From Aeropyrum camini SY1 = JCM 12091 (GTDB taxonomy: Archaea > Thermoproteota > Thermoprotei_A > Sulfolobales > Acidilobaceae): a DNA stretch of 64,000 bases. The translations under genes and the position numbers were made by a program. The notes beneath the pieces were generated by a model. The model saw only the letters and a program-made list of their open reading frames with translations. It was not told the origin of the DNA and did no database searches. The DNA is taken from positions 620,001-684,000 of the forward strand of contig NC_022521.1 of the NCBI RefSeq assembly GCF_000591035.1. The letters run 5' to 3'. Positions 6,269 through 59,470 of the stretch are shown piece after piece. Within the stretch, counting starts at the first letter, position 1; each line of letters begins with the position of its first letter.

Positions 6269-7180
6269 TTGGCTAAACCCAAGGTTATAGTCCCCATGGT
6301 AACCCCCCTCCGAGGCGGCTCCGTCGACAAGGCCGCCGCCTCCTGGCTCGCCTCCAGACTCTCGGAGAGCGGGGTTGACGGTGTCTTCGTCCCGGGCACC
6401 ACGGGCGAGTGGTACCTCCTCGACCCCCACGAGAGGGCTGAGGCGTTCTTCGCAGTAGCCTCAAGCGCCATAGCGGGGCTCAGGCTAGTGGCGGGCGTCT
6501 CGGGGTACAGGCCTGAGGAGTCCTACAGGCTGGCGGAGGAGGCCGCGGGCCACGGGGCCCACGCGGTGATGGCCGTGCCCCCAATCTACTTCAAGCCCTC
6601 GACAGACTTCCTGAGGGAGTTCTACGGCGAGATCAAGAGGAGGGCCGGGGGGCTGCCAACATACATCTACATATTCCCCGAGAGGATGGGCTACACCCTA
6701 GCCCTAGACCAGGTTGAGGCCCTTGTGGAGGCGGGTGTTGTCGACGGGATAAAGGCTACGGTCACCGACGCCGCCTACATAGCGGGCCTGGCCGCCGTTA
6801 AGGAGAGGAACCCCGGGTTCGAGGTCCTCGCCGGGGGGCTGGAGATGCTCGTCCACACATCCCTCTCCGGCGGAGACGGCGTGGTTGACGCCTACTCCAA
6901 CGTAGCCCCCAGGCTGGCGGTAGAGCTCGCGGATAGCCTGGAGAAGGGGCCTGTGGAGAGGGTGGCGGGGCTCCAGGCCAAGGTCCTCAAGCTCTCCAGG
7001 ATACTCGGGAAGAGGAGCCTCCCCTCCGTCTTGAAGGCGGTGTTGCACGTGCTAGGCGCTCCCGTGACAGGCGAGGTTAGGAGGCCGCTCAAACCGCTGA
7101 CCCAGCCCGAGGCTAACGCAGCGGCCAACGCCCTCTGCACAGGCTACAGGGAATATCTGCTCCCAGGCCTGGAATGCTAG
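6269..7180 (+). CDS. DHDPS/KDG-aldolase family class I aldolase
   Basis: Member of the dihydrodipicolinate synthase / N-acetylneuraminate lyase superfamily. Visible features are KVIVPMVTPL at the N-terminus, GTTGEWYLLDPHER (phosphate/carboxylate loop), the Tyr-containing YIYIFPER segment and the Schiff-base Lys in GIKATVTD. Archaeal members act as 2-keto-3-deoxygluconate aldolases or in lysine synthesis. The substrate cannot be decided here, and neighbours (leuS, ABC exporter) do not help. Start is TTG 6269, with a TATA-like GGATAAAT about 40 nt upstream. A downstream ATG (6296) would cut the first beta strand. Length 303 aa is standard. Confidence 0.85.
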   Translation: MAKPKVIVPMVTPLRGGSVDKAAASWLASRLSESGVDGVFVPGTTGEWYLLDPHERAEAFFAVASSAIAGLRLVAGVSGYRPEESYRLAEEAAGHGAHAVMAVPPIYFKPSTDFLREFYGEIKRRAGGLPTYIYIFPERMGYTLALDQVEALVEAGVVDGIKATVTDAAYIAGLAAVKERNPGFEVLAGGLEMLVHTSLSGGDGVVDAYSNVAPRLAVELADSLEKGPVERVAGLQAKVLKLSRILGKRSLPSVLKAVLHVLGAPVTGEVRRPLKPLTQPEANAAANALCTGYREYLLPGLEC

Positions 7181-57483: not shown

Positions 57484-58791
57484 GTGTTTAAGGTTAGGCT
57501 TTCTCCCGGCGGCGAGTTTGAGAAGGGTTTTGAGGCGGCGTCCAGCGGGTTCAGGCGGGTGGTGGAGGCTGCGGAGGGTGCTGGGGGGGTTGTGAGGATA
57601 TACTCCTACCCCTCTAGGGACGCCCTGCTGGCGGGGGCCTACCTCTTCAAGAGGCTCCTGGCCCTCGGGCTGAGGCCTGTGGCGGGTGTGAGTGTGAAGC
57701 CTCCCCCCGTTGTCTCGCCCACGGTGCTCCTCGGCTACGACGGCCTCCAGTACAAGGCCACGGAGGTCGAGCACCCGGTGCTCGCAGTCTCCTCGGGTGA
57801 GCTGCGGGGGACGCCGGTTATGAACGTCCATATGGTTGAGGCTGAGGGGAGTGTGAGCGCGGCGGCGGCCATAGCCTCTTCCGAGGTGGTCGGCTACCGT
57901 GGCTCCTGGGACGTGATGGTGGCTCTCGCGGGCTGCATGGCGGGGAGGTATGTGGAGAGGAACGGGAGGTTCCACGGGCTGGATAGGATGCTCCTCGACG
58001 AGCTGGGGAGGATAGAGGTGTACAGCCTCGAGGTCCTCACCAGCCTGAAGGCGTATAAGCCCATGGAGGGCGGGGTTTGCGAGGCGATAGCCAGGACGGT
58101 CAACCCCTACTACCCCAAGATGACGGGCGACCCGGGGTACTGTGTCGAGGTCCTCAGGGGGGAGGGGCTCGAGGGGCTGGCCTCAAGGAGCCTCTACAGC
58201 GTCACCGACAGGGACGAGCTCGGCAGGCTCGTCTCCACCATACTATCCCACGTATCCCGCTACACCCAGAGGCTGGAGGGGGAGGAGCTTGTGGAGGAGT
58301 ATGTGGGCGGCTACCCCATATCCACAGCACCCGGAGCGCCCGTTGCTGACGCGAGGATGGCACTCGACGCCCTCACCATGGCTATGGAGCTCGGGGGGCT
58401 GGAGGGGCTGCTGGCCACTGTGATGGACCTGGAGAGGGAGTACCCGATAGCGGAGGCGGCCCTCGAGGACCTGGCCCGGAGGTTCGAGGACCTCCTCTCG
58501 AGGCTGAAGCCCAGGAGGGTGAAGAGCCACCCCAGGCTCAGGCTATACCTCCTAGGCCAGGAGGCCCGGGAGGCCCCCCTATACCTGCTCTGGAGGGCCC
58601 TCCAGATAACCGGGGTGGTGGAGAGGGACAGCGTTGTAGCCGTGGAGGATGGTGAGGGGGGTGCGGTCGCCAGCGCACCACAGGCTGAGGATGCCCTCGG
58701 CGTGGGGAGCGTGAGGAGGATAGTGGAGTCGAGGCTGGGCAGGCTGGAGGGGCTCAGGCTATGGCTCGACACAAGTGCACTGCAGAGATAA
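57484..58791 (+). CDS. Cdc45/RecJ-like protein with degenerate DHH motifs
   Basis: Resembles the crenarchaeal Cdc45/RecJ homologue that joins MCM and GINS in the replicative helicase. The N-terminal VVRIYSYPSRDALLAGAYLFKRLLALGLRP aligns with the DHH motif region (normally S-H-x-D-x-D-G), but the metal-binding residues are lost. TVLLGYDGLQY is the degraded second motif. This matches a structural rather than nuclease role. The C-terminal helical part is less recognisable. Position next to pcc1 supports the call. GTG 57484; the end overlaps pcc1 by 31 nt. Assignment rests on pattern recall, not a search. Confidence 0.7.
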   Translation: MFKVRLSPGGEFEKGFEAASSGFRRVVEAAEGAGGVVRIYSYPSRDALLAGAYLFKRLLALGLRPVAGVSVKPPPVVSPTVLLGYDGLQYKATEVEHPVLAVSSGELRGTPVMNVHMVEAEGSVSAAAAIASSEVVGYRGSWDVMVALAGCMAGRYVERNGRFHGLDRMLLDELGRIEVYSLEVLTSLKAYKPMEGGVCEAIARTVNPYYPKMTGDPGYCVEVLRGEGLEGLASRSLYSVTDRDELGRLVSTILSHVSRYTQRLEGEELVEEYVGGYPISTAPGAPVADARMALDALTMAMELGGLEGLLATVMDLEREYPIAEAALEDLARRFEDLLSRLKPRRVKSHPRLRLYLLGQEAREAPLYLLWRALQITGVVERDSVVAVEDGEGGAVASAPQAEDALGVGSVRRIVESRLGRLEGLRLWLDTSALQR

Positions 58792-59033
58792 CCATCCCCG
58801 GCGGCCCCGAGATAGCGGGGAGCCTCGAGCCCGACAACATCCAGACACCCCCCTGGCTCAAGGTCTCCTGCACCTCCCCCGGGGAAGTTGTGGTCTGCAG
58901 GGTGGAGGTGGAGGGATGCGACAGCCCCAGAAGGATACTCAGCCTAAGGAACACCCTGGACGACCTGCTGAGAAGCTACAGAGCAGCCGCCGACTCCCTA
59001 GAAGCCGCGGACAAACACAGAGATAAAAACTAG
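58761..59033 (+). CDS. pcc1: KEOPS subunit Pcc1
   Basis: Small dimerising KEOPS subunit that bridges two Kae1 modules and binds tRNA. The 90-aa protein has the Pcc1 beta-beta-alpha layout: CTAEITIPGGPEIAGSLEPDN, VSCTSPGEVVVCRVEVEGCD, then RRILSLRNTLDDLLRSYRAAADSLEA. ATG 58761 overlaps the Cdc45-like gene by 31 nt, so it is translationally coupled. Kae1 and Bud32 are encoded about 7-8 kb upstream. Confidence 0.85.
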   Translation: MARHKCTAEITIPGGPEIAGSLEPDNIQTPPWLKVSCTSPGEVVVCRVEVEGCDSPRRILSLRNTLDDLLRSYRAAADSLEAADKHRDKN

Positions 59034-59109
59034 ACACCACACTGGGAGACAATACCCATAGACGTTAAACACTAAATTAACCATTAAAACAAAAATTTAA
59101 CAAATCCCC

Positions 59110-59470
59110 ACTTTCGTAGGGCTGTATATACGTTTAGATTGGGGTTATGTTTATTAGGTTTGGTTGGACCCCCCTTCTTGTTTGTATATATTTTTGTGTG
59201 TGGTTGTTTTTGTATCTCAATGTTTTCCCCTCCGGCGGGGGGAGTATATACTTTTATCTCGTTGGTAAGGGTTATTAGGCTCCGTGTGGACCCCCCATAT
59301 GGCGAGGCCCCCGGGCTAGGGCTGGGGGCCGTGCAATAAACCCCCGGGGGCCGGGGGTTTATCTATGTGATAGAGTTGACTAGCCTCCCGCCCCCCGGGA
59401 TGGCAGGGTGGAAAATAGAATATAGTATCGACTGTAGACACTACAACGCACACCAACAAAACCATGTGCA
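59110..59470 (+). promoter_or_regulatory. CRISPR leader with duplicated promoter-like modules
   Basis: AT-rich region between pcc1 and the first CRISPR repeat. Two modules each contain GTATATAC (59124-59131; 59244-59251), TTATTAGG 27-28 nt downstream (59151-59158; 59272-59279) and TGGACCCCCC 14-15 nt further (59165-59174; 59287-59296). A third GTATATAT is at 59184. A proximal box GAATATAGT (about 59419-59427) predicts a start near 59449, just before repeat 1. Leader on this side agrees with repeat polarity. Confidence 0.7.
59336..59362. other. perfect GC-rich hairpin inside the CRISPR leader
   Basis: ATAAACCCCC (59336-59345) and GGGGGTTTAT (59353-59362) form a perfect 10-bp stem with a short GGGGGCC loop that can pair further. 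It lies 109 nt before the first repeat and between the distal modules and the proximal box, so it could stop upstream transcripts or bind a protein. Confidence 0.5.

What the first reader, a model, noticed from the sequence alone, without database searches (positions are those of the whole stretch)
59110..59470. CRISPR leader carries two diverged copies of a promoter-like module
GTATATAC - 27/28 nt - TTATTAGG - 14/15 nt - TGGACCCCCC occurs twice, offset by about 120 nt. In archaea a TATA box sets initiation about 25 nt downstream, so TTATTAGG falls at the expected initiation point of each copy and TGGACCCCCC in the early transcript. A third TATA-like box (59184) and a proximal one (about 59419) also exist. 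Duplicated modules may give tandem promoters or serve as paired binding sites for Cas1-Cas2/Csa3-type integration factors. The element is seen directly; the function is inference.
Basis: partly seen in the sequence, partly recalled or inferred. Interest (0 to 1): 0.6.

Follow-up and report, generated by a model that had tools for sequence, protein, structure and literature searches.

The report
Twin Csa3-type operator-promoter modules in leader
The DNA just before this CRISPR memory array carries the same control block twice, and each block starts with a mirror-image site like one linked to the immune regulator Csa3 in related archaea, so recording and reading of virus memories here is probably controlled by a paired switch.

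Summary
Two diverged copies of GTATATAC / TTATTAGG / TGGACCCCCC lie in the CRISPR leader, 120-121 nt apart; the stated spacings are start-to-start. All six leaders of two Aeropyrum genomes carry both copies. A third same-genus genome carries them in clear form in one leader and decayed in others. None was found in 208 more distant genomes of the order.

In six same-genus genomes the palindrome-TATA pair occurs only in these leaders. The palindrome matches CAPPa, the Sulfolobales motif associated with the CRISPR regulator Csa3a. Mutating the Csa3a-binding region of a Sulfolobus leader lowers spacer uptake (published). A genome from another family carries two perfect copies in each of two leaders.

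Best explanation: twin Csa3-type operator plus core-promoter units, which position the adaptation machinery and/or drive leader transcription. The -56 TATA-like box is the likelier pre-crRNA promoter. This is a new variant of a known kind. The factor is unproven: the A. pernix-like genome lacks a recognisable Csa3a-type protein, and binding and RNA ends are untested. Leaders within each genome also evolve in concert.

The parts
59105..59122 (.). Palindrome 1, TCCC-N10-GGGC here; perfect TCCC-N10-GGGA in 4 of the 5 sister leaders; CAPPa-like operator; also the upstream edge of the DNA shared by the leaders
59124..59131 (+). TATA box 1, GTATATAC; invariant in 6 leaders
59151..59158 (+). TTATTAGG copy 1, at the expected transcription start; invariant in 6 leaders
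   Evidence: geometry from PMC4333418
59165..59174 (+). TGGACCCCCC copy 1 (7 of 10 positions invariant)
59178..59225 (+). T/G-rich stretch with TATA box 2 (59184) and two T5 runs; 42 of 48 positions invariant; TATA2 has no palindrome and no TTATTAGG
59226..59243 (.). Palindrome 2, TCCC-N10-GGGA, abutting TATA 3; arms invariant in 6 leaders, centre variable
59244..59251 (+). TATA box 3, GTATATAC; invariant
59272..59279 (+). TTATTAGG copy 2 (7 of 8 positions invariant)
59287..59296 (+). TGGACCCCCC copy 2 (9 of 10 positions invariant)
59306..59330 (.). GC-rich inverted repeat GGCCCCC...GGGGGCC
   Evidence: sequence; alignment
59336..59362 (.). Perfect 12-bp inverted repeat ATAAACCCCCGG/CCGGGGGTTTAT
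59415..59423 (+). Proximal TATA-like box ATAGAATAT at -56; likely pre-crRNA core promoter (inference)
59448..59469 (.). Inverted repeat GCACA...TGTGC beside the first repeat; in the place of the Cas1-binding stem-loop of S. islandicus; weak (z = -1.98)
   Evidence: PMC9456107
59471..60511 (+). CRISPR array, 16 identical 24-nt repeats GAATCTTCGAGATAGAATTGCAAG

Best explanation
The leader of this type I-A associated array carries two copies of a regulatory module. Each has an 18-bp palindromic operator (TCCC-N10-GGGA), a TATA box 0-1 nt downstream, an initiation site about 27 nt further on (TTATTAGG), and a C-rich early transcribed stretch. Shown here: the anatomy, its confinement to leaders, its conservation, and identity in sequence and spacing with a palindrome that sits in a Saccharolobus leader at the place where Csa3a is reported to bind. 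Inferred: a dimeric Csa3-family (CARF-wHTH) regulator binds the palindromes, helps TBP/TFB at the adjoining TATA, and holds the Csa3-Cas1 adaptation complex at the leader, while Cas1 acts at the inverted repeat next to the first repeat. The pre-crRNA itself probably starts from the box at -56.
For: The palindrome plus TATATA within 4 nt occurs 5 times in the own genome and 5 times in G004, all in leaders, and 0 times in four other same-genus genomes; reversed-pattern controls 0. Module elements are invariant at 61 of 68 positions against 48 of 73 for module spacers, Fisher p = 0.0006 (positions are not independent because the leaders evolve in concert). All three species show two modules about 120 nt apart; in G005 the distal one is clear in one leader (20/21, best of 300 shuffles 16) and decayed in the others. 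The only two TCCC-N10-GGGA sites in the 400 bp before a Saccharolobus-like array are at -116 in the leader and at -335, in front of csa1. These fit the CAPPa sites of PMC8699464; the first lies inside the Csa3a-bound distal motif -143..-94 of PMC9456107, whose mutation cut acquisition of two to four spacers 15- to 200-fold. Genome G042 has two perfect palindromes in both leaders (0 of 10000 shuffles reach two). The genome has a complete type I-A operon with csa3.
Against: G004 has only the operon Csa3 above the family cut-off. By my alignment to a Csa3a sequence its recognition helix lacks the residues PMC8699464 calls strictly conserved in Csa3a; the better Csa3a match in the own genome (317302-318000) has no G004 counterpart. 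PMC8699464 found that S. solfataricus Csa3a binds CAPPa without specificity in vitro. The cas promoters of Aeropyrum looked at lack the palindrome. Palindrome 1 has a mismatch in this leader and in one G004 leader. The palindrome alone is not rare (2 in the window, about 5 expected by chance). There are no RNA ends. The modules lie at -365 and -244, further out than in Sulfolobus.
Confidence: 0.6

Rival explanations
1. Adaptation docking sites only: the palindromes hold a Csa3-Cas1 complex, and the TATA boxes are not used as promoters; the array is read from the -56 box.
For: The Sulfolobus distal motif acts in adaptation (PMC9456107). The -56 box is at the same place in all ten leaders of three species. 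G004 keeps both modules in a leader followed by one repeat and no array.
Against: TATA and TTATTAGG are among the most conserved positions and keep promoter geometry in both copies and in a third species. Gene conversion could by itself explain the intact leader without an array.
Confidence: 0.2
2. Tandem promoters bound by a regulator other than Csa3, for example another winged-helix protein or a Cbp1-like factor.
For: The A. pernix-like genome has the palindromes but no recognisable Csa3a-type protein. Cbp1 has non-canonical sites in leaders of S. solfataricus arrays (PMC10883916).
Against: The palindrome has the sequence and spacing of the Csa3a-associated CAPPa, and the analogous leader position in Sulfolobus is bound by Csa3a. 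Repeat-like sequence, which Cbp1 would need, is weak in these leaders (p about 0.1).
Confidence: 0.13
3. An old duplication kept alike by gene conversion between leaders, without function for the distal copy.
For: Leaders evolve in concert. The distal copy is decayed in three of four G005 leaders.
Against: Copies 1 and 2 have diverged from each other except at the elements, and both are retained in all six leaders of two species.
Confidence: 0.07

Closest known systems
CAPPa, the CRISPR-associated promoter palindrome of Sulfolobales (PMC8699464)
   Same: 18-bp TCCC...GGGA palindrome next to BRE/TATA in CRISPR leaders; spacing N10 measured here in a Saccharolobus-like leader (the paper's legend writes N8 but calls the motif 18 bp).
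   Different: Here outside the Sulfolobales proper as named by NCBI, twice per leader, fused to TATA with 0-1 nt between, coupled to TTATTAGG and TGGACCCCCC, and not seen in the cas promoters examined.
Csa3a leader-distal motif of Sulfolobus islandicus (PMC9456107, PMC4333418)
   Same: Distal palindromic site plus a stem-loop next to the repeat where Cas1 binds.
   Different: One site at -143..-94 there; two at -365 and -244 here. Binding is not tested here.
Cbp1-Cren7 array chromatin (PMC10883916)
   Same: A DNA-binding factor that promotes transcription from crenarchaeal leaders.
   Different: Cbp1 binds repeats; the modules are not repeat-like.

Membership tests
CAPPa element | 18-bp palindrome with TCCC/GGGA arms | tested here: met
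   Module 2: 6 of 6 leaders; module 1: 4 of 6 perfect, 2 with one mismatch
CAPPa element | Lies immediately upstream of BRE/TATA | tested here: met
   0-1 nt before GTATATAC in both modules
CAPPa element | Generally absent from promoters that are not CRISPR-associated | tested here: met
   With TATATA it occurs only in leaders of six genomes; without TATA it also occurs once elsewhere in the window
CAPPa element | Also in front of the acquisition cassette | tested here: not met
   csa1 promoters of the own genome and G004 lack it
CAPPa element | Co-occurs with a Csa3a-type protein | tested here: inconclusive
   Present in G000 (317302) and G005; G004 has only a different Csa3
Csa3a operator | Specific binding by Csa3a | not testable with these tools
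   Needs footprinting or ChIP
Archaeal core promoter | TATA centre 26-27 nt before the start site | tested here: inconclusive
   Geometry fits TTATTAGG; start sites not mapped
CRISPR leader | Conserved between arrays with the same repeat, abutting the first repeat | tested here: met
   366 bp, 96-100% within the own genome (95-97% in G004), 84-86% between them

The most novel reading that the evidence does not exclude
The twin modules are cyclic-oligoadenylate-responsive tandem promoters. The distal one makes a short leader RNA ending at the T5 runs before TATA 3. The proximal one reads through into the array as a long-leader precursor. A Csa3 CARF protein would thus couple infection signalling to both transcription and spacer uptake through two operators.
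Probability: 0.15. Interest if true: 0.7.

Novelty: new variant of a known kind. Interest (0 to 1): 0.52.

Why it matters
How the adaptation machinery recognises leaders in archaea is only partly known, and the link between the Csa3a palindrome and its function rests on Sulfolobus. Finding the palindrome twice per leader in another lineage, fused to TATA boxes, and again in pairs in a further family, gives exact sites for footprinting and mutation. It also asks which factor reads the site in a genome (G004) without a clear Csa3a.

Tried and rejected
A TATA profile from 97 intergenic upstream regions gave no clear signal (start codons not curated), so promoter strength could not be ranked. A degenerate CRISPR repeat inside the leader was tested: p about 0.1 in the own and G004 leaders, p 0.00-0.04 in G005 leaders; not used. 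Rfam: no hit. Viral contigs: no module and no leader anchor. Whole genome G009: no array found, so uninformative. First 800 kb of G050: three arrays with an unrelated repeat and no palindrome within 700 bp, so the element is not universal. RNA hairpins were considered, but the palindromes lie upstream of their own predicted start sites, which favours a DNA operator. First belief that G005 has a single module was corrected.

Full report
Observation. The sequence holds exactly what was described: TATA boxes at 59124, 59184 and 59244, TTATTAGG at 59151 and 59272, TGGACCCCCC at 59165 and 59287. The distances quoted are start-to-start. Copy 1 and copy 2 align with a local score of 37; 2000 dinucleotide-shuffled pairs reached at most 29; no exact module appeared in 5000 shuffled leaders; the three GTATATA boxes are exactly 60 nt apart, which no shuffle reproduced.

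Genome. The window is positions 620001-684000 of a 1,595,994-bp genome. Three arrays with this repeat family exist in each genome, one of those in G004 reduced to a single repeat.

Related leaders. The DNA shared by the leaders starts at palindrome 1 (59105) and ends at the first repeat: about 366 bp, 96-100% identical within the own genome, 95-97% within G004 and 84-86% between the two. All six leaders carry both modules. Four leaders of a third same-genus genome, G005, carry the proximal module at about -154/-125, degenerate in one of them, and a second copy 116-120 nt further out. That distal copy is nearly intact in one leader (20 of 21 letters; best of 300 shuffles 16) and decayed in the others. 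No genome among the 208 others of the order searched had the module within three mismatches.

The missing part. Each module is headed by an 18-bp palindrome TCCC-N10-GGGA that ends 0-1 nt before the TATA box. Searched through six same-genus genomes, palindrome plus TATATA within 4 nt occurs ten times, all in the leaders of G000 and G004; reversed-pattern controls gave none. The two remaining copies of the twelve (module 1 here and in one G004 leader) have one mismatch. Arms, TATA and TTATTAGG are conserved while centres and spacers vary (61/68 against 48/73 invariant, Fisher p = 0.0006; the leaders are not independent). The palindrome by itself is not rare in this GC-rich window; adjacency and conservation carry the argument.

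Link to Csa3. PMC8699464 describes CAPPa, a TCCC...GGGA palindrome in Sulfolobales, next to BRE/TATA in front of acquisition genes and in leaders. In a Saccharolobus-like genome (G195) I found exactly two TCCC-N10-GGGA sites in the 400 bp before an array: one at -116 in the leader, one at -335, about 80 nt before csa1. The leader site lies inside the Csa3a-bound region -143..-94 of S. islandicus, whose mutation lowered acquisition (PMC9456107). A genome of another family (G042) has two perfect palindromes 154 bp apart in both of its leaders, the first followed 2 nt later by TATTTAAA; its paralogous leader DNA begins only about 40 bp upstream of the first palindrome. No shuffle out of 10000 gave two sites.

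Trans factors. The own genome has a complete type I-A operon, csa1-cas1-cas2-cas4-csa3-(unnamed)-cas7-cas5-cas3'-cas3'', and a second cluster next to the 312-kb array with two more csa3 genes. One of these (317302-318000) matches solved Csa3a structures at 5e-9; the operon Csa3 does not match at 0.001. G004 has only the operon type above the family cut-off, 97.6% identical. The factor is therefore unresolved.

Mechanism. The most likely reading is two Csa3-type operators, each fused to a core promoter. TATA centres at about 59127.5 and 59247.5 predict starts at about 59154 and 59274, inside each TTATTAGG. The third conserved box, ATAGAATAT at -56, predicts a start near -26 and is the better candidate for pre-crRNA. 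The inverted repeat GCACA...TGTGC beside the repeat (z = -1.98) sits where Cas1 binds in S. islandicus. Anatomy, distribution and conservation are shown; binding, initiation and effect on adaptation are inferred.

Evolution. Flanks show that the arrays are orthologous in place between the two genomes, yet 38 columns separate the leaders by species and none by locus; two leaders about 910 kb apart are identical over 366 bp. Leaders are homogenised within each genome, most simply by gene conversion. Conservation between leaders of one genome is thus not independent evidence.

Novelty. No paper in the searched library describes the palindrome in Aeropyrum or a paired, TATA-fused form; most subscription papers are not held. 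I rate it a new variant of the Csa3a/CAPPa leader operator.

Noticed in passing
window 59104-59470; L010, L011, L020, L022, L024: CRISPR leaders evolve in concert: 38 species-specific columns, 0 locus-specific; the 312-kb and 1224-kb leaders are 100% identical although far apart.
   Followed up: partly
L067 4588-4976: The A. pernix-like genome keeps a full leader followed by a single repeat and no array; the second type I-A cluster and the array next to it in the own genome are absent there.
   Followed up: partly
L041 about 5917 and L066 about 6488-6851: The 1224-kb array with its leader is inverted relative to its flanking genes between the two species; inverted repeats lie in the flank.
   Followed up: no
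L068-L071, about -66 from the first repeat: G005 leaders contain a stretch resembling their own CRISPR repeat (15-16 of 24), one repeat-spacer unit upstream of the array.
   Followed up: partly
window 59178-59225: T/G-rich stretch between the modules, 42 of 48 positions invariant in six leaders, with two T5 runs; function unknown.
   Followed up: no
L040 7031-8230 (genome 313030-314229): In the 312-kb array the leader-side repeats carry a variant (GAATCTTCGCGATAGAATTGCGAG) and the far end the canonical repeat, as expected if the leader-proximal repeat is copied at each acquisition.
   Followed up: no
window 59306-59362: Two GC-rich inverted repeats in a row between module 2 and the proximal promoter; the second perfect in the own genome, weaker in G004.
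   Followed up: no
window 58761-59033: A 90-aa open frame beside the leader has relatives in two Acidilobaceae genomes (51-59% identity).
   Followed up: no
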